Source of the DNA: a virus
Virus record (IMG/VR): IMGVR_UViG_3300012920_000022
Span: 62,001 to 126,000 of that record
DNA length: 64,000 bases
Direction: 5' to 3' (one strand)
In this document: piece after piece, positions 6,729 to 60,244 of the stretch
Position numbering within the stretch: the first letter of the stretch is position 1
Layout: every line of letters starts with the position of its first letter
Program-made: the position numbers and the translations under genes
The notes under the pieces: model-generated
The model's input: only the letters and a program-made list of their open reading frames with translations
Told to the model about the DNA's origin: nothing
Databases searched by the model: none

Positions 6729-9341
6729 ATGAAGATAACAAGTGGATTATTGTTTTTTGATAAGCATGGTAACCCCATATCATTCAATAGTGTGGATGGT
6801 AAATTAATAACTAATCTATATTTACCTAAAACTTCCCAATATATTTGGTATGAAAATACCATATTTATAGCTGAAAAATATATCACCAGTGGTGGTGATA
6901 TATGGTATGGTTATCCAACATCAGTTAATAACAATGATATTGTTGCCACCACTGAAGATCCATTTTTTCTAATAGATCCAGATATATTACTTGATGAATC
7001 ACCCCAATTATCAATAAGCAATACAATTACTTATGAAATGGATGATGGTAGTTCATTGTCATATTCCACTATTAATGGCTGTTATATAAACGATGATGTT
7101 AACAGTAGAATACTTAGAATTGATTACTGTTTTCAAAATATATCTGATGATAATATTATTACTTCCGTAATTAATATATCAGATTCCGATATATTAATAG
7201 AAATAAATTTGTATATAGAGACGGAATTTGAGGATGAAAGATACGTTAATATGTTATCTAATTTTGGTATGGAACTCAATAGTGATTTGGCTTTCATATT
7301 TAGAAATTCTGATGTTAATGAAGATTTACCAGATAATATATTGTTGAACATTAAGCGTAAAGAGTTATTTTTAGAACATAACAATATAAAACCATATAGA
7401 AGTTTATCTAAGGCTTTATTCAATTATCTTAAATTTTTTGGTTACTATGATATTGTAGTCAAATCCATATATGAAAATCTAAATTCCTCCAAACAATATT
7501 ATGTTTTAATGGATCAGGGATATGAAGATATGGATAGGAATATAAAAAATATAAGGTATCCTAATGTTCATACGGGGTTCATATCGCTTTTTTATGATAT
7601 AATTAGAGAATCCGGAGAATATGATGATTTTTCTATACCCATAACAGAAAAAGCGTTCATGTTTAGCGATCAAGAAATATCTGTAAAATTAAATGGATTA
7701 AAGAATTTATTTGATAATCAAAACATATTGGGAGATACCAATATTAGGGACATAACAGGTGAATTGGTTTATTTTAATAGGTATGATTTAAATACCTGGA
7801 GTAATGATACTAATTCCATAGTTATCAATAATGGTGTCACCGCAAAAATACTGATACCTGATAATATAATATACATTCAAGATGTAAGACATTTATTTGA
7901 TAATATTAATTGTCAATTAGACCCTAATATAACTGCCGAAAATAGCCCAAATATTATCATTGGTGAACATAATACCTGCTGGGTGGGTTATTTTGATTAT
8001 TATAATGAAGAATTTCCAATATACGAGAATGAACCAAATGCATTGGTGGGTGCTATATTAGATGTTACCAATGATAGCTTTAATGATACTTGGGATGATA
8101 TATCGACTACATGGGATGATACTGCGTTATCATCAATATTCATAAATTGGAATAATATAGGTCATAGTTATTATTATTGGATTAAATGGACTATTAGTGG
8201 TAATGGTTTCCAGGATACTATTGAAGGTTCCATAGAAAATTATAATTCTGCTAGATTCATATTACCACTAAAGGGAAAATACGATGTGGAATTTATAATT
8301 TATGGGTATAACAATGAACTCATTATAGGTGGGGTTTATCAGCAAATAATTGTTGATTGTTATGAAGCAGAAGTCACATCTATGTTTAGGATATATGATT
8401 ATCCATTAAATATATGGCGTAGTAATTATCTTAGTTGGGATACACTAGAGAATGAATGGTCTAATCCAATATATGATAATGATAAATATATAGCCTCCCA
8501 AATAGATAACCCAATATCAGATTATAATATTTCTAACTATTTACAAATAGACACCAATGATCCACTTGTTGGTATTAATAATTTTTTAGGATGGGATGAT
8601 GTTAATGATATATCTTGGAACGATTGTTTATTTATTACATGGGACATGTTAACCTATCATATAAATAAGTTGCCATCGTTTAAAATTAATAGCGTATCTA
8701 ATGGTAGTAATTTACAGATAGGTGAAAGTGTTTATGTAACATCAGATTATAATATAGAGGAATTTAAAAAATTATCAGATGATTTAAAATTATCAGATGA
8801 TGAGGATTTTTTAAGATATGATTATACTGCAAGACCTATTTCAAGACCTACATACATAGATGTGGTTGGTAGTAATTATGGTGTTGATGCAGCTAAATAC
8901 ATAGGATCTAATAAATTAGAACTATCTGGACAACATTTACCATCATGGGAGGATATGGATGATAACTGGGAGGATATTCCTATACATTGGCAAAATATGG
9001 TGTATTTTGTTAAAACCACGGAGTATGACAATCCATTGAGTTCAGATGGTACTTTCCTAAATTATGATGGGGTTATACTACCACCCATGGTTATGGTTTA
9101 TTTTACACCATATAAATCAAAAATTCCTGGCATAACTTCTTGTTCGTGGAGGTTGATTTTAGATGATAATAATGTTGCATGGATTGATAATATATATTTC
9201 TCTTATTTTTTTGTTGGCGTTGGTAACTATGATGTGGAACTCATTATAGAAGATTCAAATGGTAATATTTCATTCAGCTTGTATAAAAATTTTATAAATA
9301 TAATACCTGCGCATGAGTATTCAAACCCCGAAAACAGATAG
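6729..9341 (+). CDS. Large virion structural protein (870 aa), probably tail or baseplate
   Basis: The protein has no enzymatic motif. It is beta-rich and Asn/Asp-rich like phage tail proteins, with PYRSLSKALFNYLKFFGYYDIV near residue 220. It carries repeated Trp-Asp/Glu-Asp phrases (TWDDISTTWDD, FLGWDDVNDISWNDCLFITWDM, SWEDMDDNWEDIPIHW). The 1550-residue protein at 14685 has similar Trp phrases, suggesting a shared fold. Upstream ATAATAAATAAAG (6716-6727) resembles a T4-late box. A baseplate-wedge or large tail role is inferred; the exact T4 counterpart is unclear. Confidence 0.7.
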   Translation: MKITSGLLFFDKHGNPISFNSVDGKLITNLYLPKTSQYIWYENTIFIAEKYITSGGDIWYGYPTSVNNNDIVATTEDPFFLIDPDILLDESPQLSISNTITYEMDDGSSLSYSTINGCYINDDVNSRILRIDYCFQNISDDNIITSVINISDSDILIEINLYIETEFEDERYVNMLSNFGMELNSDLAFIFRNSDVNEDLPDNILLNIKRKELFLEHNNIKPYRSLSKALFNYLKFFGYYDIVVKSIYENLNSSKQYYVLMDQGYEDMDRNIKNIRYPNVHTGFISLFYDIIRESGEYDDFSIPITEKAFMFSDQEISVKLNGLKNLFDNQNILGDTNIRDITGELVYFNRYDLNTWSNDTNSIVINNGVTAKILIPDNIIYIQDVRHLFDNINCQLDPNITAENSPNIIIGEHNTCWVGYFDYYNEEFPIYENEPNALVGAILDVTNDSFNDTWDDISTTWDDTALSSIFINWNNIGHSYYYWIKWTISGNGFQDTIEGSIENYNSARFILPLKGKYDVEFIIYGYNNELIIGGVYQQIIVDCYEAEVTSMFRIYDYPLNIWRSNYLSWDTLENEWSNPIYDNDKYIASQIDNPISDYNISNYLQIDTNDPLVGINNFLGWDDVNDISWNDCLFITWDMLTYHINKLPSFKINSVSNGSNLQIGESVYVTSDYNIEEFKKLSDDLKLSDDEDFLRYDYTARPISRPTYIDVVGSNYGVDAAKYIGSNKLELSGQHLPSWEDMDDNWEDIPIHWQNMVYFVKTTEYDNPLSSDGTFLNYDGVILPPMVMVYFTPYKSKIPGITSCSWRLILDDNNVAWIDNIYFSYFFVGVGNYDVELIIEDSNGNISFSLYKNFINIIPAHEYSNPENR

Positions 9342-9642: not shown

Positions 9643-10500
9643 ATGTCTAATATAGAGAAGTTATTAATTAGTGGTGATGATAGAAATATAAGACTTGCAT
9701 TTATGTTGATAAAATCTACTAATCCCAAATATGACGATAAAATTAGTAGCATGCTGGTGAAATATCCAATATATTGTTTAGAATATGGTGTTGAATTATA
9801 TTATTTTAAATCCATTAATGAACTCACCATAGAAAACTGGTTTTTTGGTGAATTACCAGATTCTTTATTTAATCTAACTAATCTAACTAGTTTGAACATA
9901 TTTAATACTCATATAACCAAAATTCCCGATAATATCGGGAATTTAACCAATTTATGCACATTAAATATAAAATATAACAAGAGATTGACCAAATTACCAG
10001 AATCTATTGGTAATTTGGTCAATCTCACAGATTTATGTTTATCTGATAATGGTATTAATAGTCTACCAGAATCTATTGGTAAACTTGGTAAATTGCACAC
10101 ATTAAATACAACAAATAATCAATTATCCCATGGACTTCCAGAAACAATTGGCAATTTGAAGAATCTTCAAATTCTTCAAATTGCCAATTGTTTCTTAACT
10201 AAATTACCGAAATCTATTATTAAATTGCACAATTTAACAAAATTATATATTAATAATAATTCTATTACTAAATTACCGGAATCAATAGGTGAATTAAAAA
10301 GCTTAACTCATATAATTTTTAATGATAATTATATTACCAAATTACCGAAATCAATGGGTGATCTGGATAATTTGATTTGTTTGGATATTTCTAATAACCA
10401 AATATCAAATAATGTTAGTAAATTAAATGAAATGAAGAATTTGCGTATTTTTAATAACAACTATAATAATAGTGAATTACATGAAATTCACTTTAAATGA
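9643..10500 (+). CDS. Leucine-rich-repeat protein (285 aa)
   Basis: The family N-terminal domain (IEKLLISGDDRNIRLAFMLIKS, VKYPIYCLEYGVELYYF) is followed by about eight LRR units (LPESIGNLVNLTDLCLSDNGINS). The repeat order is somewhat irregular. Two strong perfect inverted repeats lie inside the LRR region (9981-10026 and 10140-10195). First gene after promoter copy 3; its end overlaps the ATPase gene start by 20 bp. Confidence 0.88.
   Translation: MSNIEKLLISGDDRNIRLAFMLIKSTNPKYDDKISSMLVKYPIYCLEYGVELYYFKSINELTIENWFFGELPDSLFNLTNLTSLNIFNTHITKIPDNIGNLTNLCTLNIKYNKRLTKLPESIGNLVNLTDLCLSDNGINSLPESIGKLGKLHTLNTTNNQLSHGLPETIGNLKNLQILQIANCFLTKLPKSIIKLHNLTKLYINNNSITKLPESIGELKSLTHIIFNDNYITKLPKSMGDLDNLICLDISNNQISNNVSKLNEMKNLRIFNNNYNNSELHEIHFK
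9981..10026. repeat. Perfect 18-bp inverted repeat inside LRR gene
   Basis: GAGATTGACCAAATTACC (9981-9998) pairs exactly with 10009-10026 around a 10-nt loop. Confidence 0.9.
10140..10195. repeat. Perfect 25-bp inverted repeat inside LRR gene
   Basis: The 25-nt arm at 10140-10164 is the exact reverse complement of 10171-10195, with a 6-nt loop (CTTCAA). The transcript would form a very stable hairpin in mid-coding sequence. Confidence 0.9.
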
Positions 10501-11126: not shown

Positions 11127-11645
11127 ATGTCAACTATAATATACGATGCTTACAAATATGATGGTAATTTACAATCACTTATGGATGAATTACCCAGAGT
11201 AAGAATTGATTTCCACAAACACATAGAATCTAATCTTAAATCTTTATTTAATGATGAGATAATGGATGCAGATAATGCATATCAATCAGTTAAAAATATG
11301 GCAAAATCTGATATGAGATGGATTCAAGAATATGAAGATACATGTATACAAGTATATGTGTGTGAAGACATAATATACATACAATTATTTGGAATGATAA
11401 AAAGCATACACATACATGATGATTTAATAAAGAAATTATATGATTTTTCCTTTGATGACAGATGTATGGATGATAGTGAAAAAGATTGGTGGAAGAGTAG
11501 AGAAAAAATCTGGGGGAAAATATTTCATAAATCACCGATACCATTATATGCTGGACTATCATATAGTATCGGTGATTCCAATATTATGTTACTTGACACA
11601 ATAAGGAAAATAAGAGGTGAAAAGCCAATATATGGATACGGATAA
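11127..11645 (+). CDS. Hypothetical protein (172 aa) in LRR operon
   Basis: The gene starts 1 bp after the ATPase stop. The N-terminus reads MSTIIYDAYKYDGNLQSLMDEL, the middle has an aromatic/acidic segment (MRWIQEYEDTCIQVYVCEDIIYIQLFG), and the C-terminus ends KPIYGYG. No recognisable domain. A 12-bp inverted repeat (11530-11541/11566-11577) is within it. Translationally coupled with its neighbours by spacing. Confidence 0.7.
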   Translation: MSTIIYDAYKYDGNLQSLMDELPRVRIDFHKHIESNLKSLFNDEIMDADNAYQSVKNMAKSDMRWIQEYEDTCIQVYVCEDIIYIQLFGMIKSIHIHDDLIKKLYDFSFDDRCMDDSEKDWWKSREKIWGKIFHKSPIPLYAGLSYSIGDSNIMLLDTIRKIRGEKPIYGYG

Positions 11646-12714
11646 TAAAATATTACAATTATTAAGCAGTGATGATGATGCCAATATTAAATTAGCATTT
11701 AGCATTGTTAAACCATTACAGTATGGGGATTCTGTGGCTGTAAAGTTAAGAGAGTTTCCATATTATTGTTTGGAGCATGATCTGGAGATGGATTTTATGG
11801 TTGAATTATGTAAATTAACCATAAAACATGTAAAATTCAATAAATTACCAGAATCTATTGGTAAATTGACTAAATTGACTAAATTGACTATTGAGGATAC
11901 TGGGATATCAAAACTACCAGAATCTATTGGTAAACTAATTAATCTTAAAACGCTGTCTATTATTGGTCATACCATAACCAAACTACCAGATGCCATAGGT
12001 GATTTGACCAATTTAAGATGGTTAAATATTGAGAGAGGTACATTATCAGAACTACCAGATGCCATAGGTAATCTGGAAAATTTGGATATATTATCTATTG
12101 TTAAAAATAATTTGAATTCATTACCAGAATCTATTGGTAAACTCAATATGTTGACTATGTTGACTATTAAGTATACTGGGGTATCAAAACTACCGGAATC
12201 CATAAGCAATCTGGTAAACTTAAAGCAATTAACCATTGTGGATAGTATGTTATTAAGTTTACCAGATTGCATAGCTAAATTAGTAAACCTAGACACATTA
12301 TCTATTCCTGGTAATTTTATTACTAAATTACCAAAATCAATAGGTAATCTAAATAAACTCACCAGGGTTGATATTAGTGGAAATCAGTTAGTGGAACTAC
12401 CAGAATCAATAGGTAATTTGATAAACTTAATTTCATTGTATTTACATGACAATACCATAGCTAGATTACCAGAATCTATTGTAAAATTACGACAATTGTT
12501 GTGTTTAGATTTATCAAATAATAACTTATTTGATTTACCCAAAGAATTTACCAGTATGGTTGGTTTACAAGAATTATCTTTATTTAATAATCAACTTATG
12601 GATCTCCCACCAACCATATCAAATATGGTTGGTTTAACAACTATAAATGTACGTAGTAATAATTTTAATAAAATACCCGTATTTTATCATACTCCCATAA
12701 CTATTTTAACATGA
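11632..12714 (+). CDS. Leucine-rich-repeat protein (360 aa)
   Basis: The family N-terminal domain (KILQLLSSDDDANIKLAFSIVK, LREFPYYCLEHDLEMDFM) is followed by about twelve LRR units. Units carry motifs such as LPESIGKLTKLTKLTIEDTGISK and LPDAIGDLTNLRWLNIERGTL. The ATG at 11632 gives the expected N-terminus; the earlier GTG at 11617 is less likely. It overlaps the previous gene by 14 bp and the next LRR by 4 bp. Confidence 0.88.
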   Translation: MDTDNKILQLLSSDDDANIKLAFSIVKPLQYGDSVAVKLREFPYYCLEHDLEMDFMVELCKLTIKHVKFNKLPESIGKLTKLTKLTIEDTGISKLPESIGKLINLKTLSIIGHTITKLPDAIGDLTNLRWLNIERGTLSELPDAIGNLENLDILSIVKNNLNSLPESIGKLNMLTMLTIKYTGVSKLPESISNLVNLKQLTIVDSMLLSLPDCIAKLVNLDTLSIPGNFITKLPKSIGNLNKLTRVDISGNQLVELPESIGNLINLISLYLHDNTIARLPESIVKLRQLLCLDLSNNNLFDLPKEFTSMVGLQELSLFNNQLMDLPPTISNMVGLTTINVRSNNFNKIPVFYHTPITILT

Positions 12715-13568
12715 TGGATGATAATATATTAATATTATTAGATGGTGATGATATTAATATTAGATTAGCTTTTACCATGGTTAAATCATTGAATTATGAT
12801 GAAGTTGTTTCCGATAGATTAAGAGAATTCCCGTTATATTGTTTGGAATATGGTGTGGAAATGGATTATATGATCAATTTAAAGAGTTTAAAAATTGATC
12901 ATATGGGGATTGATAAATTACCAGATTCTATCGGGGAATTAAAAAATCTTATATCTCTGGATATAAGTCACAACCATCTCATGTACCTACCAAATAGTAT
13001 TGGGGAATTAAAAAATCTTGAACAATTATGGTTAAATAATAATTTTTTAGTTGAATTACCTGAATCGATCAAGAATCTATGTAAACTCAACATGTTGAGT
13101 TTACATGATAATGAATTTAACCATTTTCCCGAATCAATATGCAAATTACAAAATATTCAGTGGATAGATTGTGAAAATAATCTAATATATGAATTACCAG
13201 ATTCTATCGGGGAATTAAAGAATTTGAGAGAACTAAGTTTTAATCATAATTATATTAGCAAGTTGCCAGATTCTATCGGGGAATTAAAGAATCTAAGATC
13301 TTTGGATGTTGGTTTTAATAAAATGATTGAATTGCCTGATACTATAGGAGGATTATGTAAACTATTTAGATTATCTGTTTGTGATAACTATATATCTGAA
13401 TTACCAAAATCCATATCAAAACTAAAACATATTAGTTCCATAGATATAAATGATAATCCTATCGTTCACATTCCAGAATTTATATATGAATTAGAAAGCT
13501 TAAATTATTTACATCATAATGATATAACCATCAATTTAAAAACTTCCGAAACATGGAAAATAAGGTAA
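12711..13568 (+). CDS. Leucine-rich-repeat protein (285 aa)
   Basis: N-terminal domain MMDDNILILLDGDDINIRLAF, then LREFPLYCLEYGVEMDYM; about nine LRR units (LPDSIGELKNLISLDISHNHLM). Codons repeat in the LRR part, with LPDSIGELKNL recurring. A 28-nt perfect palindrome (13079-13106) lies in the coding region. Overlaps the next LRR gene by 16 bp. Confidence 0.88.
   Translation: MMDDNILILLDGDDINIRLAFTMVKSLNYDEVVSDRLREFPLYCLEYGVEMDYMINLKSLKIDHMGIDKLPDSIGELKNLISLDISHNHLMYLPNSIGELKNLEQLWLNNNFLVELPESIKNLCKLNMLSLHDNEFNHFPESICKLQNIQWIDCENNLIYELPDSIGELKNLRELSFNHNYISKLPDSIGELKNLRSLDVGFNKMIELPDTIGGLCKLFRLSVCDNYISELPKSISKLKHISSIDINDNPIVHIPEFIYELESLNYLHHNDITINLKTSETWKIR
13079..13106. repeat. Perfect 28-nt palindrome inside LRR gene
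   Basis: ATGTAAACTCAACA is directly followed by its reverse complement. No spacer. Confidence 0.9.
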
Positions 13569-14644
13569 TTAGTTTAATAAATAGTGATGATATTACTAAT
13601 ATAGATTTAGCATTTACACTAATTAAATCTATATATGCAAATGATAGTTATAGTGAAACAATATTATCTGAAATCAAATCATATCCTACATATTGTTTAA
13701 AATATGGTATAGCATTATCTTATATTAATAGATTGGATATATCCAATCTTGATGAATTTAATCTATTAATCTATCATATATCTGAATTAACATCACTATA
13801 TTATTTAAATATATATGATATAAATTTAAATGAATTACCCTCTGAAATTGGTGATCTAATAGAATTGCGTAGGTTGGATTTGAATAATAACAACCTACGC
13901 ACATTACCTGATTCTATTGGGAATTTACATAATCTATGCTGGTTATCCATAAACTATAATAGATTAGATATTTTCCCAGATTGCATTACTAAGTTATATA
14001 ATTTAAGATCATTGTTTATAACTGGTAATGGATTGTATGAATTACCAGAATCAATAGGCAAACTGAAGAATTTATCCAGTTTACATGCTGGTAACAATTA
14101 TTTTATTTCAGGCTTACCAGAATCAATAGGAGAATTAAAGAAATTACGTAATATTAGCTTTGTGAATAGTAGGCTTAACACATTACCTGATTCCATAGGT
14201 GAATTGGAAAACTTACAGACTGCTAATTTATTCTATAATCTTATCCCTAGAGTACCAGAATCAATAGGAGAATTAAAGAAATTACAAGAACTGAATCTTA
14301 ACAATAATGAAATTAGTGAATTACCAGAATCAATAGGTAAATTGATAAATCTAGAATTATTATATCTTAATTCAAATGAGCTACAAGATATACCATCATG
14401 TGTTATTGAATTAAAAAATTTAAAAGAATTACACATTGATAATAATTATTTGTATGTAATTCCTGAATCAATGGGTGAATTAACTAATTTACAAGAGTTA
14501 AGTTTGGCTAAAAACGAGCTACAGGATCTCCCATCATCAATCAATCAACTAATGAAATTAAGAGAATTGAATATATCTGAAAATTATATTGATGATTTAC
14601 CGTGGTATCTATATGACATGAATGATCTTATAGTTATTAGATGA
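13553..14644 (+). CDS. Leucine-rich-repeat protein (363 aa)
   Basis: N-terminal domain (VISLINSDDITNIDLAFTLIKS, IKSYPTYCLKYGIALSYI) and about thirteen LRR units (LPESIGKLKNLSSLHAGNNYF, VPESIGELKKLQELNLNNNE). Last gene of the 9.6-14.6 kb operon; a 9-bp hairpin follows at 14660. Function unknown. Confidence 0.88.
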   Translation: MENKVISLINSDDITNIDLAFTLIKSIYANDSYSETILSEIKSYPTYCLKYGIALSYINRLDISNLDEFNLLIYHISELTSLYYLNIYDINLNELPSEIGDLIELRRLDLNNNNLRTLPDSIGNLHNLCWLSINYNRLDIFPDCITKLYNLRSLFITGNGLYELPESIGKLKNLSSLHAGNNYFISGLPESIGELKKLRNISFVNSRLNTLPDSIGELENLQTANLFYNLIPRVPESIGELKKLQELNLNNNEISELPESIGKLINLELLYLNSNELQDIPSCVIELKNLKELHIDNNYLYVIPESMGELTNLQELSLAKNELQDLPSSINQLMKLRELNISENYIDDLPWYLYDMNDLIVIR

Positions 14645-25292: not shown

Positions 25293-25973
25293 ATGAAAAA
25301 CGAAGAAATATTGAAAATATTGAAACATATAAATGATCCAATTTCCCTCGATAGTCTTTTTGCGACTATTAAAAAAGATCGCATTAAATATAATGGTGAA
25401 GTTGCTAAAATTATTAAGGAAAAATTTATATTTTACTGTATAAAATATAAATTAGAAATTAAACACTTGAAAAAGATTACTGAACTGAATCTATCAGATA
25501 CTATTGGTGATCATTTTGAATTACCACCATCAATAGATGTTATGGTTAATTTAAAGAAGTTGGTTATAAATAATACCAGGATAGTGAGTTTACCAGAATC
25601 GATGTGTAAATTGAAAAAATTAGAAAGATTATCTTTAAACCGCAACCAAATTATAAATTTACCAAATTCCATTGGTAAATTGAAAAATCTGGAGAGACTA
25701 TCATTAAATGACAACCAAATTATAAGTTTACCAAATTCCATTGGTAAACTAAAAAAATTAAAGTACTTGTCTTTGCGTAATAATAGATTATCAAAATTGC
25801 CATCCACTATCAATAAATTAACTAATTTAATGGTAATGTATCTAGATAATAATGAATTGGAAGAATTGCCATTTGAGGACATTGGACTTACAGAACTAAC
25901 ACTTAATGGTAATATCATCGACACCAGCAGAGAAATTAAATGGATCTATGGTTGGGAAAAACCATGGATATGA
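25293..25973 (+). CDS. Leucine-rich-repeat protein, variant N-terminal subfamily (226 aa)
   Basis: The N-terminal domain is a variant of the family (EILKHINDPISLDSLFATIKKDRIKYNG, FYCIKYKLEIKHL). About five LRR units follow (LPNSIGKLKNLERLSLNDNQI). It ends with a distinct Trp-rich cap (EIKWIYGWEKPWI). The adjacent broken gene at 26025 belongs to the same subfamily. No export signal. Confidence 0.87.
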   Translation: MKNEEILKILKHINDPISLDSLFATIKKDRIKYNGEVAKIIKEKFIFYCIKYKLEIKHLKKITELNLSDTIGDHFELPPSIDVMVNLKKLVINNTRIVSLPESMCKLKKLERLSLNRNQIINLPNSIGKLKNLERLSLNDNQIISLPNSIGKLKKLKYLSLRNNRLSKLPSTINKLTNLMVMYLDNNELEELPFEDIGLTELTLNGNIIDTSREIKWIYGWEKPWI

Positions 25974-26024
25974 TCTGTTTTAATTTCTAGTAACCCAATT
26001 ATATACCAATAAATTTATGATATT

Positions 26025-26682
26025 ATGACAAGTAAAGAAATAGTAGATATACTAACTACCATAAATGATCCCATTATTATTGATAGTCTTTTTGCGACTA
26101 TTAAATATAAAAATATTAAATATAATGGTAAGGTCAGAAATATGATTAGAAAACATTTCATATACTATTGTATTAAATATGAACTAGAGGTTAAATATCT
26201 GAGAAAAATTACTATTTTAAACCTATCAGGTAGTATAGGTTTACATCATGAATTGCCTTCACCCATAGATGTTATGGTTAATCTAGAAAAGTTAGTTATA
26301 CAAAATACAAAGATGGTTACCTTACCAGAATCAATTGGTAATCTTAAAAGATTAAAATCACTATGTCTAAATAATAATAGGCTGGTTACCTTACCAGAAT
26401 CAATTGGTAATCTTAAAAGACTGAACTTTTTATATTTGAATAATAATCAACTTACAGAATTACCAAATACGATTGGTAAGCTAAAAATATATGAGCTATA
26501 TTTGAATAATAATCAACTTACAGAATTGCCAAATACCATCAGTAATTTAACCAATTTTAAATGTATTACATTTGAACAACAATCAGCTCATAGATTTACC
26601 ATCAACTGATAATATGGAGTGGTTGGTTGAATTACTGCTAGATAATAATATAATGGATAATAGTAGACAATTTAAATTATGA
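26025..26682 (+). pseudogene. Frameshifted leucine-rich-repeat gene
   Basis: The reading frame from 26025 encodes the variant N-terminal domain and LRR units, then runs into an unrelated tail (FEQQSAHRFTIN, stop 26609). In the +1 frame from about 26568 the sequence continues as LRR: HLNNNQLIDLPSTDNMEWLVELLLDNN to a TGA at 26680-26682. Removing one A at about 26568 restores a perfect LRR register (NFKCIHLNNNQL). This is a single-base insertion in a recently intact gene, or a sequencing error. Confidence 0.8.
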
Positions 26683-34489: not shown

Positions 34490-35944
34490 ATGATAAGCTA
34501 CCAATTATTAAACAATAAGTTATTAATATCATATATTAATGATAAGGGCAAAATAGCCCACTATAGTCACGTTATTCCTGATGACGAAATGTTTACTTGG
34601 GAGAAATCTAGAACCAAAACCGGATATAGAAACCACCTGGGTGGATATGCCAGAAAGAATTATAATAAGAAACCCAATAGATTTAGGATTTGGGAAATAA
34701 TATATGGATTTGATGATGAAATTAGAAATACCATATCTAACGATAATGAACCCGATACTTGGTTCATGGATATAGAAACCGAAGTTATAGATGGATTCCC
34801 AGATGTTGATAATCCAAGAGAAAAAGTACTAACTAATTCATTTTGTAATAACAATATAGTTGTATCTACTGGTATAAAAGATTTATCAGCCATGGATAAA
34901 GAGTGGATACAACAAGAAATAAACCGACATCTTGCACCAATCAACAAGAAATATAATTTCAAATTTAAGCATTACCCAAGTGAACAATTGATGCTTAAAG
35001 AATTATTTTCAGTATTTGTCCCATCCATGCCCATGATAGTTGGTTGGAACTTCTTAAAATTTGACTGGGCTTATTTAGTAGCTAGGGCTACCAGACTTGG
35101 ACTCAATAAATTTGTATTAAAATCTTCTCCAACCGGGGTTATGGAAGATTATTATATTAAAGACAAATATAATAGGAACCATAAGCAAAAAATAAGATTA
35201 CCACTCCATAGAATAGTATTAGATGATCTGACATTATGGGAAAAATACGATTATTCTATGAAAATAAAATCATCCGCGAAATTAGATAATGTTGCAAAGG
35301 AAGTACTGGGTATCAAAAAAGTGGAATATAATGATACATTTATGGGAATGTATAATAAAGATTATAAAAGATATGTATTTTATAATGCAATAGATACTAT
35401 TCTTAATAAAGAGATACACGATAAGTTGGGATATTTTAACTCCCTCAATAAACTCAGTATGTTAACCCATACTCCAATGAATCAGGCACTATTTGTGTCA
35501 CATTGTCTGGAATCTAGATTTGTGGAAAGTTATCTTGCAAGAGGTAGACACATGGTTAGTAATTCAAATAACGATACTGATACTTACTCTGGGGCATTTG
35601 TTAAAGAACCGAATCCAGGGATATTCGATAATGTGTTAATATCGGATTTTGAGAGTCTATACCCCAATTTAACCATGAAGTTTAATATTAGTACTGATAC
35701 GTACATGGGTGTAAAATCAAGCGATAGTACGTACATATGTAGATTCACTAATGAGGAAAAAAAATTGCAGTTGGGAGAAAAGCACATAGTAACAGAAGAA
35801 GGTACTGTATTTGCATCTGATAAAATAGGTGTTGCTCCGGAGATTATCAATAGGCTTATAAATGAAAGACTATATTCTAAAAAAACAGCCAATGAAATAG
35901 ATGCTGAAAAAAATTATTTGGAAAATTTGCTAAAATCAATGTAG
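34490..35944 (+). CDS. Family B DNA polymerase, N-terminal part only (484 aa): exonuclease plus motif A
   Basis: T4 gp43-like. Exonuclease motifs: DIET (D94/E96), WNFLKFDWAYL (D192) and YNAIDT (Y298-D302). Palm motif A is DFESLYP (D386). The protein stops at residue 484, before the fingers motif (K-x3-NSxYG) and motif C (YGDTDS), neither of which occurs in this window. T4 gp43 is about 900 residues with motif A at D408. This is either one half of a split polymerase whose C-terminal subunit is elsewhere, or a broken gene. The next gene (35946) shows no polymerase motif. The TAG is followed directly by the next ATG. Confidence 0.9.
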   Translation: MISYQLLNNKLLISYINDKGKIAHYSHVIPDDEMFTWEKSRTKTGYRNHLGGYARKNYNKKPNRFRIWEIIYGFDDEIRNTISNDNEPDTWFMDIETEVIDGFPDVDNPREKVLTNSFCNNNIVVSTGIKDLSAMDKEWIQQEINRHLAPINKKYNFKFKHYPSEQLMLKELFSVFVPSMPMIVGWNFLKFDWAYLVARATRLGLNKFVLKSSPTGVMEDYYIKDKYNRNHKQKIRLPLHRIVLDDLTLWEKYDYSMKIKSSAKLDNVAKEVLGIKKVEYNDTFMGMYNKDYKRYVFYNAIDTILNKEIHDKLGYFNSLNKLSMLTHTPMNQALFVSHCLESRFVESYLARGRHMVSNSNNDTDTYSGAFVKEPNPGIFDNVLISDFESLYPNLTMKFNISTDTYMGVKSSDSTYICRFTNEEKKLQLGEKHIVTEEGTVFASDKIGVAPEIINRLINERLYSKKTANEIDAEKNYLENLLKSM

Positions 35945-42455: not shown

Positions 42456-42934
42456 AATATAGACTAGAAAGAATCACTATCAATACTACCAAATTATATT
42501 ATACTAGCCCCAAATTATATTATAACCAGTTTAATTCTGCTGGTAATAGATATTCACAAAATAAAATCAGAGGTGGTAGCTGGATACCAATTAATGTAAA
42601 TATATTGGATAAAAATGGTGTTATATTGGCAACCACTAATGTGAATGTAGATAAGTCAGTAGTTAGTCTTGGTAATGATTTTATAATAAAATTGGTAAAT
42701 GTGGGTGATAGGATTAGTGATAATGAGATAGAATCATTTATTAATAAAGATAAAAACCATATATGTGATATGGAAATGTTCATGGATACTATTACTCGCG
42801 TAGTTAAAAATGACAATAATCTAAATAATGAGGAGTTGAATAATGTAAGAAAATTTATTAATATGATGGGTAAATCAAAAAGATTTTCTATTATGGCTCA
42901 TAATTATATAAAAAATCATGAGCGTCATGAATAA
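42449..42934 (+). CDS. Hypothetical protein (161 aa)
   Basis: Begins MVKYRLERITINTTKLYYTSPKLYYNQF; Arg/Asn-rich with GGSWIPINVNILDKNGVIL. Last plus-strand gene of this block; it overlaps by 10 bp the stop of the convergent lyase gene. Unrecognised. Confidence 0.6.
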   Translation: MVKYRLERITINTTKLYYTSPKLYYNQFNSAGNRYSQNKIRGGSWIPINVNILDKNGVILATTNVNVDKSVVSLGNDFIIKLVNVGDRISDNEIESFINKDKNHICDMEMFMDTITRVVKNDNNLNNEELNNVRKFINMMGKSKRFSIMAHNYIKNHERHE

Positions 42935-44271
42935 TATGATAACCCTTGGTAGTTTGATATATCAATGTTATTTTTTATTTCTTCTATGACACCGGATGAT
43001 ATGCCATATTTGTGTAAATTGTCACAGAATTTCATTATATCATCCGGTGTCATATTATTTTTTGCATTAGACCAGTTTTTACATATTTCATATGCATTAA
43101 CAACACCCTCCCTTTTCATTATTGTTTGGATACCCTCCATTAATACTATACTATACTTACTCAATTCTTCTAATATAAATTCCTTGTTAAATGATATTTT
43201 TTTCATACCCTTTAAAATTTTTCTAATGCCCACTATAAAATATCCTAAAGGAACTCCAATATTATCATATAGCACACTGTTTGATAAATCACCATATAAC
43301 CTAGATTTAGTTAATCTTATCTTCATTGAGTTAATAATATAGCTTGACATATTTAGATTACCTTCAGCCAAGTCAAATTCTGATAAATCAGTTTTGTGTG
43401 GCATAGAGGAATCTCCTATGATGGTACTACCTTTTTTTATTATGTACCCCATAAGACCATAAGACCACATATCCATGGATAAATCAACAAGCACTCCATT
43501 AATTTTATTAATGGAATCAATAAAAGATACCAAACCATCATTACTACCAACCTGAGTGGTAAATTTTTCTCTTGGTAAGTCATATTTATATACAAATTCA
43601 TCCATTAATTTATGCCAATCTGCATTAGGTAACGACATGTAGTGTGCATTCAAATTACCAGTTGTGCCACCAAATTTCACATAAACTGTTGATTGTTTGT
43701 ATTCTTTTAAACACCTACATATCCTATCTTTATAAACTCTAAATATTTGTGATATAGTGGTGGGAGTACATGGTTGACCTTGTGACCTGGGTATGAAAAC
43801 TGTTTCATCATATTTATCTATAAATACATCAAATTGGTTAATTATATCATCTGTATATTTTGATATTGTTGGTTTGAAATCATTTATCATAATAGCCATA
43901 GATAATGATGATACATCTTCGGATGATAATCCATAATGTATATAGGATATATTACTATCTATATGTTTTTTAATATATTCATTTATGGCATATATTTGAT
44001 CACCGTATTTTTTAGCTAAATCTATAATAAATTTAGCTGATGACATATCATATTTAATATATAGTTGCTTAATTTCGTTTATCTCACCTATATTGAATGG
44101 TCTGCATGGTGTTTCATCCAGATTACAAATATAGATGAGATAATCGCATGCAACCATTAGTTTATATTTTATGGTTGCATATTCTGAGAAATAATATGAT
44201 AGATCTATTAAATCTTCAAAATACTTACCAGTTAATGGTGATATAGATAATATTTCACTATTAGTTAACAA
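42925..44271 (-). CDS. purB: PurB-like adenylosuccinate lyase superfamily protein with altered active site (448 aa)
   Basis: Aligns along its length with E. coli-type PurB (about 456 aa): YIHYGLSSEDVSSL (family TSEDINN), IPRSQGQPCTP (family RTHGQPATP), GGTTGNLNAHY (family GAVGNYNAH) and the flexible-loop signature GDSSMPHKTDLSEFDLAEGNL. The THGQ histidine, the general acid in PurB, is Gln here (codon CAA), and EPHD is GSND. Other catalytic parts are kept. Normal PurB acts on adenylosuccinate and SAICAR in purine synthesis; this one may be inactive or act on another substrate. TTG start (44271) fits the family N-terminus. It holds an 18-bp inverted repeat (42985-43054). Confidence 0.88.
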   Translation of the reverse strand: MLTNSEILSISPLTGKYFEDLIDLSYYFSEYATIKYKLMVACDYLIYICNLDETPCRPFNIGEINEIKQLYIKYDMSSAKFIIDLAKKYGDQIYAINEYIKKHIDSNISYIHYGLSSEDVSSLSMAIMINDFKPTISKYTDDIINQFDVFIDKYDETVFIPRSQGQPCTPTTISQIFRVYKDRICRCLKEYKQSTVYVKFGGTTGNLNAHYMSLPNADWHKLMDEFVYKYDLPREKFTTQVGSNDGLVSFIDSINKINGVLVDLSMDMWSYGLMGYIIKKGSTIIGDSSMPHKTDLSEFDLAEGNLNMSSYIINSMKIRLTKSRLYGDLSNSVLYDNIGVPLGYFIVGIRKILKGMKKISFNKEFILEELSKYSIVLMEGIQTIMKREGVVNAYEICKNWSNAKNNMTPDDIMKFCDNLHKYGISSGVIEEIKNNIDISNYQGLSYYS

Positions 44272-46453: not shown

Positions 46454-47344
46454 TTAATTTGGATCTTTTAAATATCTATCGTGTTCGCCATTTTTCAGTT
46501 GTCTCATAACATCTTTAATATTATAACCAATATGAATATGACTTAATTGATCACATTGACAATACCATCCATCATTAGCCCAATAGAAAAGTTCTATATT
46601 ACCAGTAAATCCTCTATTTTTCATTTCATTTATTATCTTTCTTTTATTTTTACTCATTGGGGTTTTTTTGATGTTTATGTGATTTTTTGTATTTATTTGA
46701 TCACGCTTAGTTAATTTTATTGGTAGTATGCCAACTCCATTCATATTTATGCTCCAAGCTTTTTTATGATCTATTCTAAGTTCATCCCCACATACCACCA
46801 TACCTTTCATACCATTTATAAAGAAATTCAATGTACACATTTTTGCGCACATTTCATCAATATCGGTACAATAAAAATAGTTATTAGGGTGATCCTTAGC
46901 TATATCCAACATAGTTCTACCAGATCCCGCAGAAGGATCATAGAATGACTTATCAGTAATCACATCAGGAACACATATCATACCCATTAATTTACATATA
47001 GAACTTGGTGTAAATACTTGACCCATCTTCTTATCACTAAAATTCTCCATAAATATGTGACCCAATATATCTGAATAATTATGATCATATGCACTATTTA
47101 CAAATATGGATATGAGTTCTGAAAATGAATCTATTTCATTCCTGTCATAATTTTTTATGATATCCATATATAATGATTCATTATTCTCATCTTTCATGGA
47201 TAAAGAAGACTGTATATTAATTGAATGGTATGTACATATGGCTAATTGTAAAAAATCTTTAAATATTTGTCTTCTGCCGTGTTTACCACCCAAATCAAAT
47301 AATATATCAGTAAATCGTTTTATATAGGGATTTAAATTAATCAT
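46454..47344 (-). CDS. N6-adenine methyltransferase-like protein lacking NPPY motif (296 aa)
   Basis: The SAM-binding start of HsdM/N6 methylases is clear: MGQVFTPSSICKLM, then YDPSAGSGRTMLDIA (motif I) and YCTDIDEMCAKMC. The catalytic NPPY/F motif expected after GDEL is not seen (AWSINMNGVGILPIKLT). The C-terminal half is unrelated (RGFTGNIELFYWANDGWYCQCDQLSHI). It may be inactive or use another site. 4-bp overlap with the next gene. Confidence 0.7.
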   Translation of the reverse strand: MINLNPYIKRFTDILFDLGGKHGRRQIFKDFLQLAICTYHSINIQSSLSMKDENNESLYMDIIKNYDRNEIDSFSELISIFVNSAYDHNYSDILGHIFMENFSDKKMGQVFTPSSICKLMGMICVPDVITDKSFYDPSAGSGRTMLDIAKDHPNNYFYCTDIDEMCAKMCTLNFFINGMKGMVVCGDELRIDHKKAWSINMNGVGILPIKLTKRDQINTKNHINIKKTPMSKNKRKIINEMKNRGFTGNIELFYWANDGWYCQCDQLSHIHIGYNIKDVMRQLKNGEHDRYLKDPN

Positions 47345-49973: not shown

Positions 49974-50456
49974 TTAACTTATGTGTTTCCAATAATATGG
50001 GATAGCAATATCATGACTATCATTCAATGAATCATCCATAACATTGTTATCTAATAATCTCCAATATTGGTTACTATTTTTATATCCTACTACACATGAT
50101 GTTAAATCGGTGATTATGATTAATTTATTAATTGGCATATTTTCATCTATATAGTTCCAGCCTTGGAGCTGTTTTCTAATAATGAAATCATTAAACGCAT
50201 CTGGGTGACCTATCTTATTGAGTTTCAAAAAATTTCTAAAGCTATCAAAACTCTCCAAAATCTTTGAGCCTAACTTACATATGGGTTCCATCATAAGATA
50301 TTTACTGGATATATTAACATCTCTATACATTGTTGGTATGTGTGACATACTAAAGTGATGTCTGCTGCACCCACAAAAACTACACTTATCGTAGTTATTA
50401 TAAGGTTCATTTTTGATATTAATCCATTTATGATTATTTGTAATTATTTTATCCAT
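49974..50456 (-). CDS. Cys-rich DUF551-like protein (160 aa), paralog of preceding gene
   Basis: ATG at 50456 (MDKIITNNHKWINIKNEPYNNYDKCSFCGCSRHHF). Ends PYYWKHIS. Shared zinc-like motif and DUF551-like C-terminal segment with 49489. Overlaps the methylase gene stop by a few bases. Confidence 0.6.
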   Translation of the reverse strand: MDKIITNNHKWINIKNEPYNNYDKCSFCGCSRHHFSMSHIPTMYRDVNISSKYLMMEPICKLGSKILESFDSFRNFLKLNKIGHPDAFNDFIIRKQLQGWNYIDENMPINKLIIITDLTSCVVGYKNSNQYWRLLDNNVMDDSLNDSHDIAIPYYWKHIS

Positions 50457-51286
50457 CAAAATACATTGAGATTATTTTTAAATTTATTTTCAGTATATGG
50501 TATATATAAACCCTTATTTATGGGATCACAATGTTTAAAAAATATGTCACGATTCTTTTCAAATCCTATAAAATTTCTACCAGTTTCTATACAAGCCTTA
50601 GCCGTAGATCCAGAACCCATACACGGATCTAATATTACACTGTTTTTATCTGAGTATGTTTCTATTATATGTCTCATTAATGATGTGGGTTTAAGTGTGG
50701 CAAAAAAAGGGGATGGTATGGGGCTAAAATCCAATACAGAATTTACTAATATTTCTAATTCATAGTCATTATAGTCACTCACTATAATGGATTTAGGGTA
50801 TTTTAAATTGCTTTTATTGGTATCTAAACTTTTGAATTTACCATAGTTATTATTAGTTATGTTTTTATGTTTGTGGGCATTACCTTTTGAATGGGAGGGT
50901 TTACCAGTAGTAAATTGGGGGTTATAGATAGGCAGTTTTTTATAATATATTGTTATTTCTTCATGATTAACCAAAGGAATCCTGTTAGAATTTAAAAATC
51001 CTGTTGTTTTTTCACCTTTCTTCCATATATTAGTATATCTATAGTATTTTTTATTGGACATCATTAATTCGGCAGTAAATATGCCCTGGGATGTTAATAT
51101 AATGGGAGTGTTTGATTTAGATACTCTGAATATATTATTCCAAAATTTATCTAAATCAATTTTAATATCCCATTCATTTTTACTATGACCATATGGTAAA
51201 TCGGCAAATACCATATCCACAAAACCATCCGGTATATTATCAAAACCATCAAACATATCTATATGTTGTATTTGATTTAGCATCAT
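50456..51286 (-). CDS. DNA methyltransferase, N4/N6-type with DLPY motif (276 aa)
   Basis: N-terminal DMVFADLPYGHSKNEWDIKIDL (catalytic DLPY, motif IV), a variable target-recognition region with KKGEKTTGFLNSNRIPLVNHEEITIYYKK, and C-terminal LDPCMGSGSTAKAC (SAM-binding motif I). This motif order is beta-class. It methylates A or C in phage DNA and may protect it from host restriction. No partner nuclease is visible next to it. Confidence 0.85.
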   Translation of the reverse strand: MMLNQIQHIDMFDGFDNIPDGFVDMVFADLPYGHSKNEWDIKIDLDKFWNNIFRVSKSNTPIILTSQGIFTAELMMSNKKYYRYTNIWKKGEKTTGFLNSNRIPLVNHEEITIYYKKLPIYNPQFTTGKPSHSKGNAHKHKNITNNNYGKFKSLDTNKSNLKYPKSIIVSDYNDYELEILVNSVLDFSPIPSPFFATLKPTSLMRHIIETYSDKNSVILDPCMGSGSTAKACIETGRNFIGFEKNRDIFFKHCDPINKGLYIPYTENKFKNNLNVF

Positions 51287-54188: not shown

Positions 54189-54803
54189 TTATTTGTAAGT
54201 TAACTGATTAAAACCATTTTGATCAGATTCTACTGGTGACTGATTGGAAAAGTTTATGAGATCTACTATCACAGATTTGGTATAGAGCCATTTATTTTTA
54301 GCATATTCTGGTGACCAAAATTCATCTCTGGGAGCAGTTTTATCCATCATAAACGACATTTCATATTGGGCTAAATTCTTATCCATCTGTTTCACCAATT
54401 GGGACATATCATGGGGGAAGTTGAATCTTTGACCTAACATAAACATTATTTGGTTTTCTATCTTATCTACTTGATCTCTAACCAAATTTTTCAACGGTCT
54501 TGTCATATCACCTATAAATGCTTCAGAAGCGTCATGATATAAAAACTGGTAAGCATCATAGATGTGACCCATTAACATCAATGATTCTGCACCTTTTACA
54601 CAGTGTTGGGCTATAGAATAAAAATAGCCAGTGTTACCCACATATCTACACTGATTGGATAATGATGATGCAATCAATTCATCATTTATCCAATCATAAT
54701 TTTCAAAATCGAGTATGTTGTATACAACATTATTTTGTCCAATAGTATCGCCAACTTTGTTAGCGTCATTGTTTATGGATTGTAATCCTATTAATCTTTT
54801 CAT
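54189..54803 (-). CDS. HD-domain (d)NTP/nucleotide phosphohydrolase (204 aa)
   Basis: HD motifs: FYSIAQHCVKGAES (first His), FLYHDASEAFIGDMTRPLK (HD and GD). NQCRYVGNTG precedes. Phage proteins of this shape resemble YfbR-type 5'-deoxynucleotidases and DatZ-type dATP hydrolases. A role in dNTP-pool control is inferred. ATG at 54803; longer frame reads into the protease promoter region. Confidence 0.8.
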   Translation of the reverse strand: MKRLIGLQSINNDANKVGDTIGQNNVVYNILDFENYDWINDELIASSLSNQCRYVGNTGYFYSIAQHCVKGAESLMLMGHIYDAYQFLYHDASEAFIGDMTRPLKNLVRDQVDKIENQIMFMLGQRFNFPHDMSQLVKQMDKNLAQYEMSFMMDKTAPRDEFWSPEYAKNKWLYTKSVIVDLINFSNQSPVESDQNGFNQLTYK

Positions 54804-54863
54804 AAATGATGTTTTATATTGATGATGTTTTATATAATAACATATACCCATAATCTTGGTTAC

Positions 54864-54884
54864 TAATAAATAAATAAATATAAA
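54864..54884 (+). promoter_or_regulatory. T4-late-like A/T box before prohead protease gene
   Basis: TAATAAATAAATAAATATAA runs up to about 7 bp before the start at 54891. Matches the late box type; A/T-rich context limits confidence. Confidence 0.45.
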
Positions 54885-54890
54885 ACTCAT

Positions 54891-56627
54891 ATGGCGCATA
54901 AAAATAAAACTCATATTTTTATATATGAGGAAATGGATATAATGTTAAGTCAGTCAGATAAGGAAAATGTATACACTGGTATATGTGCAGACTTTAATGG
55001 AAGGAATGAAAATAACAGATTATATGACAAAGATGACTATTTAAAACATTTGCCATATTTAAATGAGTTAATTAAAGATAATAAACTATATGGGGAAATA
55101 GATCACCCACATCGATATGAGGTGGATGAGGATAAGATAAGTCACCAAATAATAGCCCTATGGTATGATGAAGAGGCTAATCAAGTAATGATAGCCATAA
55201 AATTACTTGATACTGATGAAGGAAAAAGAGCCAAAGCGAAAGCTCTGGAAAATGGTAATCAGATAAATATAAGTTCCAGAGCATCCGGATACATGGATGA
55301 AGAATTAAACGTAGAATTGGAACGCATTTACACATATGACATAGTAGACGTACCAGGATTTAAAAATGCTACACTCAAACCATTGAATGAGAATAGAAAC
55401 AATGGGAACAACTCGTCGATATATTTATTAGTTATAAATGAAAATAAAATTGTGCACAATATGGATGACAATAATAAATCCACCAACATAGATGATTTAA
55501 TTAACGAAAATAGATTGCTTAGATCTACTGTAAATAGCTTGCTTGAAAAAGCAAATGAATCAGATAGGAAGTTGAATGCAGTGGTAGCATATTTATCTAT
55601 GATCAATGAAGATTCAAATCATCATAAAAATTACACTAACAGTATTGCCAAATACGTGAATAAACTCACTGATCACGTTGATAAAAATTCTGAGTTTACC
55701 AACAAACTTGCAGATCACGTTGATGAAAGCAATAGGTATGTGAATAAACTCACTGATCACGTTGATAAAAATTCTGAGTTTACCAACAAACTTGCAGATT
55801 ATGCAGATTACCTTGGGATTAATCTCAATAAATCTATGAGTTTCATTAATGAAAATTCTGAGTTTACCAACAAACTTGCAGATTATGCAGATTACCTTGG
55901 GATTAATCTCAATAAATCCATAAACGTAATGGATGAAAATTCTGATTTTACCAACAAACTTGCAGATTATTCAAATTATATGAATGAAAATTTGAATAAT
56001 GTTATATCAAAATTGGATGAAAATTCTGATTTTACCAACAAACTTGCAGATGCTTATGATAATACTGCTGATTTCATAAACAATAAAGTGGGTGCTGGTA
56101 AAATTAAACCGAAAAAGAAAAAGACCGAAAAAGAAAAATCAATGGAGTTGGTTGAAAAAGTGAAAAGTAGACAAAATGACAAACAACTCCAAATATTAGT
56201 ATCCAAATATCCCTTCGTAAAAAGTTTAAATGAATCATATTTAACAAAATTCAAATTACTAAATTCCAATAAAAAACGAATTATATCTGATTTTATCAAT
56301 GAAAACAATGATGTTACAGTATCATCATTAATGGGTAAAATTGATGAAATAAATAATGTAACTACATTAGAAGAACAATTTGAATCCAGGATACCCCAAT
56401 ACATATTTCCAATATGGGAATCATTATCTACAACCGATAAACATAATATAGTATCCCAATATAATAGCAGAAAGATTGAAAGTAATGAAGACAATAAAAG
56501 ATTTTGGGAGTCTATAGATTTGAGGAAGTATAAAAATAGTAAAATCGTTAATGAGAACCATGGTGGTGGTGAATATAATATGTCGGGATATAGCATGGAT
56601 GATGTAGACAAATTGCTGAAATTTTAA
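54891..56627 (+). CDS. Prohead protease-scaffold fusion (578 aa)
   Basis: The N-terminal ~165 residues match the T4 gp21 protease (family U9): GEIDHPHR (His72), NISSRASGY (Ser128/129) and TYDIVDVPG (Asp150/153). T4 splits protease (gp21, 212 aa) and scaffold (gp22); here one chain holds both. After a linker lies a coiled-coil scaffold with repeated units of NSEFTNKLADxxDYLGINLNKS. The C-terminus (ENHGGGEYNMSGYSMDDVDKLLKF) may bind the portal or capsid. Cleaves head proteins at (I/L)-x-E sites during maturation. Confidence 0.87.
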   Translation: MAHKNKTHIFIYEEMDIMLSQSDKENVYTGICADFNGRNENNRLYDKDDYLKHLPYLNELIKDNKLYGEIDHPHRYEVDEDKISHQIIALWYDEEANQVMIAIKLLDTDEGKRAKAKALENGNQINISSRASGYMDEELNVELERIYTYDIVDVPGFKNATLKPLNENRNNGNNSSIYLLVINENKIVHNMDDNNKSTNIDDLINENRLLRSTVNSLLEKANESDRKLNAVVAYLSMINEDSNHHKNYTNSIAKYVNKLTDHVDKNSEFTNKLADHVDESNRYVNKLTDHVDKNSEFTNKLADYADYLGINLNKSMSFINENSEFTNKLADYADYLGINLNKSINVMDENSDFTNKLADYSNYMNENLNNVISKLDENSDFTNKLADAYDNTADFINNKVGAGKIKPKKKKTEKEKSMELVEKVKSRQNDKQLQILVSKYPFVKSLNESYLTKFKLLNSNKKRIISDFINENNDVTVSSLMGKIDEINNVTTLEEQFESRIPQYIFPIWESLSTTDKHNIVSQYNSRKIESNEDNKRFWESIDLRKYKNSKIVNENHGGGEYNMSGYSMDDVDKLLKF

Positions 56628-59428: not shown

Positions 59429-60244
59429 TTAAAAAATTTTATGTATATTCAATGAAATATCAAAATTTGTAATTATAAGTTCTGATGTTTTTCTCTCCCT
59501 ATCATTTTTATGTAATGAATAATTCACATTAGTATCAAATATATTATATTCATCATATAAATCTCTATAGAATTGATTATCAGGAACAGTTAATATAAAC
59601 TTACCGGATATATTAGATATATTGTTTTTCAATGTAGTCTGATCATCTATATTATCCATATTATGGATATAATATTTAGTACTAACGGTATTACTAGTAA
59701 TATATGGTGGGTCTATGAAAAATAATACATGTTCATCATCATATTTTGATATAATAACCTCATATGATTGATTTTCTATATATACGTCTTTAATTCCTTC
59801 ATAGATGTCTTTGATGATATTTATTATGTGGTCTTTGCTAGTGGGTTTTCTAGTTTTTGAAGTACCAAAAGAATTGTAATTATCATTGCTAAATCTTCCC
59901 CTATATCCATATATAATTAAATACAAAAACCTATATGCTTTATCGATATTATTTTTGGGTTTTGATTTTCTGATATTATCATATAATAATCTGGAACATA
60001 TATTCCATTCAAATTTATCCAACAATTCATCTAAATTGTTGGATATCACCGTAAATAAATTTGTTATATCACCATTGATTTCATTCAAACATCTGGGATA
60101 TTTGGTATTATTGATAGTATATACGCAACTTCCACCAAATAATTCTACCAAAAATTTTGCATCAGAGTTTTTGGTAATATCGAGTAGCATGTTTAAAATC
60201 CTGGATTTAGAACCAAGATATGGAAAAGATTTTTTTAACCCCAT
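59429..60244 (-). CDS. dam: DNA adenine methylase, Dam/D12 class (271 aa)
   Basis: FPYLGSKSRIL (SAM-binding start), FLVELFGGSC (motif I), VLFFIDPPYI (DPPY, motif IV) and TSELIITNF (final motif). Matches Dam-type alpha-class N6-adenine methylases (T4 Dam is 259 aa). Likely protects phage DNA from restriction. One-base overlap with the next gene. Confidence 0.87.
   Translation of the reverse strand: MGLKKSFPYLGSKSRILNMLLDITKNSDAKFLVELFGGSCVYTINNTKYPRCLNEINGDITNLFTVISNNLDELLDKFEWNICSRLLYDNIRKSKPKNNIDKAYRFLYLIIYGYRGRFSNDNYNSFGTSKTRKPTSKDHIINIIKDIYEGIKDVYIENQSYEVIISKYDDEHVLFFIDPPYITSNTVSTKYYIHNMDNIDDQTTLKNNISNISGKFILTVPDNQFYRDLYDEYNIFDTNVNYSLHKNDRERKTSELIITNFDISLNIHKIF

What the first reader, a model, noticed from the sequence alone, without database searches (positions are those of the whole stretch)
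42925..44271. PurB-like lyase with catalytic His replaced
The protein aligns with E. coli-type PurB over almost its whole length, including the SSMPHK loop, but the THGQ histidine (general acid in PurB) is Gln and the conserved EPHD is GSND. A phage keeping the fold but changing the acid/base residue may have a new substrate, a regulatory role, or loss of activity.
Basis: partly seen in the sequence, partly recalled or inferred. Interest (0 to 1): 0.7.

Follow-up and report, generated by a model that had tools for sequence, protein, structure and literature searches.

The report
Phage PurB with dismantled active site
A virus of Bacteroidota-type bacteria, which seems able to make the alternative DNA letter 'Z' (2-aminoadenine), carries a well-folded relative of the purine enzyme PurB in which nearly the whole catalytic machinery has been replaced, suggesting an enzyme turned into a non-catalytic or repurposed protein.

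Summary
The Gln at the catalytic-His position is real but is a small part of the change. The gene (42925-44271, minus strand, 448 aa, intact, TTG start) encodes an E. coli-type PurB fold (AlphaFold pLDDT 89, TM 0.91 to E. coli PurB). R15K, D92Q and N309L are also lost. The EPHD region is variable and uninformative. Every other phage PurB found keeps the acid/base pair. The same 136-kb genome encodes a PurZ-like synthetase (Asp13 to Ser), a MazG-like protein and a guanylate kinase. Its relatives MaF61 and two IMG/VR phages carry the same four genes with an intact PurB. So this looks like the lyase of a 2-aminoadenine (Z) cassette that in this phage lost ordinary catalysis while the reading frame was maintained. 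Best reading: a pseudoenzyme; a mixed tetramer with host PurB is a guess that no test here supports. Decay of the cassette (this phage alone among ten PurZ phages has a Dam-type methylase) and a new lyase activity remain open. Literature searched describes the lyase step as host-encoded.

The parts
42925..44271 (-). PurB-like ORF, 448 aa, TTG start, TGA stop; active-site-substituted adenylosuccinate lyase paralogue
43780..43782 (-). codon 164, Gln in place of the catalytic acid His (E. coli His171, S. aureus His141)
   Evidence: 104/104 other PurBs have His
43411..43413 (-). codon 287, Asp in place of the proposed catalytic base, first Ser of GSSxMPHK (E. coli Ser295)
   Evidence: 104/104 others have Ser
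43387..43389 (-). codon 295, Asp in place of the invariant Asn of the signature loop (E. coli Asn303)
43999..44001 (-). codon 91, Asp in place of invariant His (E. coli His91, S. aureus His68); codon 92 is Gln in place of the ribose-binding Asp
43264..43293 (-). codons 327-336: the stretch QRDLTDSTVLRN of relatives reads YGDLSNSVLYDN; two invariant Arg (E. coli 335 and 344) become Gly and Asp
54189..54914 (-). HD-domain nucleotidase-like protein (YfbR/PHROG 318), possible DatZ-like pool enzyme
   Evidence: (below Pfam cut-off); assignment to DatZ is inference
59429..60244 (-). D12/Dam-type adenine-N6 DNA methyltransferase (DPPY kept), found in none of nine other PurZ phages tested; bears on whether the genome still carries adenine
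50456..51286 (-). N6/N4 DNA methyltransferase (DLPY motif)

Best explanation
The gene is a phage-lineage copy of Bacteroidota-type PurB that once served as the lyase of a phage 2-aminoadenine cassette (MazG-like: dGTP to dGMP; PurZ: dGMP + Asp to succino-2-amino-dAMP; PurB: to dZMP + fumarate; guanylate kinase: dZMP to dZDP). In this phage it has lost adenylosuccinate-lyase catalysis but the fold and reading frame were kept: a pseudoenzyme. The lyase step, if still used, is done by host PurB, as in the studied Z phages. Its retained job is most likely non-catalytic; my leading guess is assembly into mixed tetramers with host PurB, whose active sites are each built from three subunits, so that host lyase activity is damped or redirected. 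Shown: fold, residue changes, companion genes, intact relatives, maintained frame. Inferred: loss of activity, Z chemistry, direction of evolution. Guessed: the mixed tetramer.
For: Fold: AF2 pLDDT 89.3, pTM 0.88; TM 0.91 to E. coli PurB 2ptr. Active site: H91D, T122S, H171Q, S295D, N303D, R335G, R344D at columns identical in 104/104 others, plus R15K, D92Q, N309L. S. aureus PurB structure assigns these roles: Arg4, Tyr5, Asn276, Ser306, Arg310 phosphate; Asp69 ribose; His141 acid; Ser262 base (PMC2917274). In other divergent phage PurBs the active site is spared relative to other conserved columns; here it is not (10/19 lost versus 28/73; L050 0/19 versus 16/73). Frame maintained: neutral drift enough to change 11 of 20 sites would leave on average 18 stops, minimum 5 in 300 runs; codon usage is like neighbours. 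Cassette: PurZ-like gene, MazG, guanylate kinase; the same set with intact PurB in MaF61, G026, G027. Tree: window sits in an all-phage PurB clade, support 95/98. Active sites from three subunits (PMC2917274, PMC6301967).
Against: No biochemical data. The second Ser (Ser288) is kept, and one structural study favours that Ser (human Ser290) as the true base. Asp287 could itself act as a base. Lys293, Gln240, Ser117, Tyr17 and Ser332 are also kept. Tetramer-core helices are not specially conserved towards host PurB, so the mixed tetramer has no positive support. No close relative with the same changes was found, so persistence over time is untested. The window branch is the longest in the tree (3.67), so its place is unsure. 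Guanylate kinase also occurs in some PurA-type phages (4/10), so it is not specific to Z phages. That the phage makes Z is not shown.
Confidence: 0.5

Rival explanations
1. Decaying remnant. This phage is leaving the Z strategy: the lyase has lost its active site because host PurB suffices or because Z is no longer made, and DNA methyltransferases protect an adenine genome instead.
For: Only this genome of ten PurZ phages has a D12/Dam-type methyltransferase, and it has a second intact N6/N4 methylase. PurB is the only member of the cassette with ruined catalytic residues. Very long branch.
Against: 448 codons without a stop although half the active-site residues changed. The structural core is kept (pLDDT 89). 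The PurZ motifs are intact. One genome is a thin basis for the methylase link, and several of the compared records are fragments.
Confidence: 0.2
2. Neofunctionalised lyase: the Asp287/Gln164 pair and altered pocket cleave a different substrate, perhaps a non-phosphorylated succinyl compound, since the phosphate- and ribose-binding residues are lost but Lys293, Ser288, Gln240 and Ser117 remain.
For: Retained residues lie mostly in the succinyl/N6 half of the pocket. The ASL superfamily is known for varied substrates (Foldseek also hits CMLE and the decarboxylase Tad1). Frame maintained.
Against: The signature-loop Asn, which helps hold the carboxylate throughout the superfamily (own knowledge), is Asp. 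Acid and proposed base are both replaced. No conserved alternative His is evident. No gene next to it suggests a new pathway.
Confidence: 0.22
3. Still a working lyase tuned to succino-2-amino-dAMP (dSMP), with an unusual catalytic pair.
For: PurZ-like, MazG-like and guanylate kinase genes in the genome. Ser288 kept; Asp could serve as a base.
Against: All other PurB proteins found in PurZ phages (MaF61, G026, G027, actinophages) keep the full canonical active site, so dSMP does not require these changes. The phosphate-binding Arg residues are lost.
Confidence: 0.08

Closest known systems
E. coli-type adenylosuccinate lyase PurB (PRK09285; PDB 2ptr, 2ptq, 3bhg)
   Same: Full-length fold, TM 0.91, 25-34% identity, C-terminal ASL_C domain
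   Different: Acid, proposed base, signature-loop Asn, His91-Asp92 and three Arg of the nucleotide pocket replaced
PurB-like lyases of PurZ phages: Flavobacterium phage MaF61, IMG/VR G026 and G027, actinophages Archimedes, Hiyaa, Galactica, Keanu
   Same: Phage-encoded PurB family gene in a genome with a PurZ-type synthetase
   Different: All aligned members keep His171, Ser295, Asn303, Arg335 and Arg344. The window gene is about 25% identical to MaF61's
2-aminoadenine pathway of phages phiVC8, SH-Ab 15497, S-2L
   Same: PurZ with Ser in place of the PurA catalytic Asp; nucleotide-pool enzymes
   Different: In those phages the lyase and kinase steps are assigned to host enzymes (PMC12884076). 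Here the phage carries PurB-like and guanylate kinase genes and a family B polymerase split in two genes, instead of DpoZ or PrimPol
delta-1 crystallin and other silent members of the ASL/fumarase superfamily (own knowledge)
   Same: Superfamily fold kept without its enzyme activity
   Different: A lens structural protein in birds; unrelated role and different loss pattern

Membership tests
Adenylosuccinate lyase (PurB), by homology | Full-length sequence and fold similarity with N-terminal, central and ASL_C domains | tested here: met
   the NCBIfam equivalog score of 304 is below its 446-bit cut-off
Adenylosuccinate lyase (PurB), as a catalyst | Catalytic acid His (E. coli 171) | tested here: not met
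   Gln164; 104/104 others have His
Adenylosuccinate lyase (PurB), as a catalyst | Signature loop GSSxMPxKxNP with the base Ser (E. coli 295) and Asn303 | tested here: not met
   GDSSMPHKTDL: Ser295 to Asp, Asn303 to Asp; the second Ser is kept
Adenylosuccinate lyase (PurB), as a catalyst | Phosphate and ribose binding set (Arg15, Tyr16, His91, Asp92, Asn309, Arg335, Ser340, Arg344) | tested here: not met
   Only Tyr16 and Ser340 are kept; roles from PMC2917274
Adenylosuccinate lyase (PurB), as a catalyst | Lyase activity on adenylosuccinate or SAICAR | not testable with these tools
   needs an assay
PurZ-type Z-genome phage | PurZ with Ser replacing the catalytic Asp13 of PurA | tested here: met
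   P0004 GAGSSGKAK; phrog_1211 E=1e-37; similar to phiVC8 PurZ 6fm1 and S-2L PurZ 7odx
PurZ-type Z-genome phage | dGTP/dATP pool enzymes (MazZ, DatZ) | tested here: inconclusive
   A MazG-domain protein and a YfbR/HD-like protein are present, but their specificity cannot be told
PurZ-type Z-genome phage | DpoZ (PolA family) or PrimPol with DatZ for Z incorporation | tested here: inconclusive
   The replicative polymerase found is family B, split in two genes; no dedicated search for DpoZ was made
PurZ-type Z-genome phage | 2-aminoadenine in virion DNA | not testable with these tools
   needs LC-MS of DNA; adenine methylases argue for caution

The most novel reading that the evidence does not exclude
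A phage-encoded, catalytically dead PurB that joins host PurB tetramers and retunes them during infection, part of a phage-encoded route to 2-aminoadenine nucleotides (MazG, PurZ, PurB, guanylate kinase) in Bacteroidota-type myoviruses.
Probability: 0.15. Interest if true: 0.8.

Novelty: new variant of a known kind. Interest (0 to 1): 0.58.

Why it matters
The Z-DNA papers found here assign the lyase and kinase steps of dZTP synthesis to the host. This lineage suggests a phage route that carries its own PurB and guanylate kinase, in a host group (Bacteroidota-type) not named in the 2026 survey. The window phage supplies a natural case in which only the lyase has been stripped of its catalytic residues. 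Comparing it with MaF61, which has a cultured host, makes the question 'why does a Z phage carry PurB, and can it do without the catalysis?' directly testable.

Tried and rejected
Isolated sequencing error: rejected, about ten independent changes. Misalignment hiding a catalytic Ser: rejected, no gap lies between Gly286 and MPHK, so Asp falls exactly on the first Ser. Acinetobacter 'phage' MD-2021a PurB (H1, H2): bacterial contamination, nudJ-trmU-ycfC-purB context. Salmonella, Listeria and Enterococcus 'phage' hits: unannotated wastewater contigs, not used. EPHD to GSND as evidence: rejected, a variable region. Close relatives of the window PurB: a scan with the protein alone gave none; scans with alignments gave only intact PurBs. 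Sister phages through the capsid protein: the nearest (L077, 51% identity) is a 29-kb fragment without a PurB match. Interface conservation as support for mixed tetramers: no signal. Excess loss at the active site over other conserved columns: not significant (p=0.3); what differs is that the usual protection of the active site is absent. A second, intact PurB in the same record: not found.

Full report
What is there. The ORF 42925-44271 (minus strand) encodes 448 aa from a TTG start just downstream of a RuvC-like gene to a TGA stop. It is an E. coli-type PurB by sequence (NF006764 304 bits; Pfam ASL_C and Lyase_1 over cut-off; best PDB matches are all E. coli-type adenylosuccinate lyases) and by predicted fold (pLDDT 89.3, pTM 0.88; TM 0.91 to 2ptr). 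The best 80 cellular matches are nearly all Bacteroidota PurBs at 29-34% identity. The window lies in a 135,755-base IMG/VR virus record. Its major capsid protein is 38% identical to that of Flavobacterium myovirus MaF61 (myovirus morphology from PMC13269007).

The His change is part of a wholesale loss. I aligned the protein with PurBs from IMG/VR phages, MaF61, actinophages, one Acinetobacter copy and 80 cellular genomes. In 104 other sequences twelve pocket columns never vary (H91, T122, S123, H171, Q247, S295, S296, M298, K301, N303, R335, R344; E. coli numbering, site list recalled from UniProt P0AB89 and matched to the contacts published for S. aureus PurB, PMC2917274). The window protein changes seven of these: H91D, T122S, H171Q, S295D, N303D, R335G, R344D. 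It also has R15K, N90G, D92Q and N309L. The EPHD to GSND difference falls in a variable stretch and means little. No other sequence in the set loses the acid or the first Ser.

Is it a real, maintained gene? GC3 and codon usage match the neighbouring genes. If the gene had drifted neutrally far enough to change 11 of 20 pocket residues, about 18 stop codons would be expected (minimum 5 in 300 simulations), against none seen. In other divergent phage PurBs the pocket is spared while other conserved columns change (L050 0/19 versus 16/73). In the window protein pocket and non-pocket conserved columns are lost at similar rates (10/19 versus 28/73, p=0.3). This fits a fold under selection with the catalytic constraint lifted. 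It does not show what the protein does now.

Surroundings: a 2-aminoadenine cassette. The same record encodes a 415-aa PurA-family protein (G000:32368-33615, minus) whose P-loop reads GSSGKAK, with Ser in place of the PurA catalytic Asp. It matches PHROG 1211 (2-aminooxy adenylosuccinate synthetase) and the phiVC8 and S-2L PurZ structures, and shares the LTKLPRRV and NFxNYV motifs with MaF61. Phage PurA-family proteins fell into two sets: PurZ-type (GSS/GSE) and PurA-type (GDxxKGK). The record also has a MazG-domain protein (G000:134460-134996) and a guanylate kinase (G000:134986-135513) in adjoining genes, and an HD nucleotidase-like gene at window 54189-54914. MaF61, G026 and G027 carry the same four: PurZ, PurB, guanylate kinase, MazG, each with an intact PurB pocket. 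Published accounts assign the lyase and kinase steps to the host (PMC12884076; PMC12783734); no paper found discusses phage-encoded PurB in Z phages. Guanylate kinase also occurs in 4 of 10 phages of the PurB set without PurZ, so alone it is not diagnostic.

Evolution. A careful tree places the window protein in a clade of phage PurBs only (support 95/98), with MaF61, G027 and L050 (PurZ type) and L033, L035, L039 and L046 (PurA type), inside Bacteroidota-type PurBs. Its branch is the longest (3.67), so the exact place is unsure. The simplest story is an ancestral phage PurB whose catalytic residues were lost in this branch.

How it may work. Loss of adenylosuccinate-lyase activity is the most likely consequence: acid and proposed base are replaced, the signature-loop Asn is Asp, and most phosphate and ribose ligands are gone. 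One structural study argues that the second Ser (human Ser290) is the true base (PMC6301967); that Ser is kept here as Ser288, so complete inactivity is an inference. Because each PurB active site is built from three subunits, a dead subunit could poison or retune host PurB tetramers. I found no special conservation of the tetramer core towards host PurB, so this remains a guess. Alternatives are decay and new chemistry. For decay: this is the only one of ten PurZ phages with a D12/Dam-type methylase, which would suit a genome that still contains adenine. For new chemistry: the retained residues Lys293, Ser288, Gln240 and Ser117 sit in the succinyl/N6 half of the pocket.

Verdict. It is a new variant of a known kind: an active-site-stripped PurB in a phage lineage with a PurZ cassette.

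Noticed in passing
G000:32368-33615 (L008:12368-13615, minus), outside the window: PurZ-like synthetase of 415 aa, 42% identical to that of Flavobacterium phage MaF61: a putative Z-genome lineage of Bacteroidota-type myoviruses, a host group not named in the 2026 Z-phage survey.
   Followed up: partly
34490-35944 (plus) and G000:131541-132719 (L011:5641-6819, minus): Family B DNA polymerase appears split into two genes about 33 kb apart on opposite strands, the break falling near the start of the polymerase domain.
   Followed up: no
1334-2125, 4255-4935, 4947-6059, 9643-10500, 11617-14644, 25293-26609 and L011:918-1475, 6823-7758: At least 12 leucine-rich-repeat proteins (LPESIGxLxNL repeats), many sharing an N-terminal cap (NIxLAF...YPxYCLEYGVEM): a large paralogous family in one phage.
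   Followed up: partly
46454-47344, 50456-51286, 59429-60244 (all minus): Three DNA methyltransferase genes; the first lacks an NPPY-type motif, the other two keep DLPY and DPPY. GATC is under-represented in the genome (438 seen, 640 expected).
   Followed up: partly
L022 / G004 (IMG/VR 169,621-base phage): Its PurZ relative (43% identity) contains one in-frame TAG, possibly TAG recoding.
   Followed up: no
L019, L033, L035, L039, L041, L045, L046, L047 and their genomes: A second set of large phages carries PurB with a canonical Asp-type PurA (adjacent in L019), suggesting phage-encoded AMP synthesis rather than Z synthesis.
   Followed up: partly
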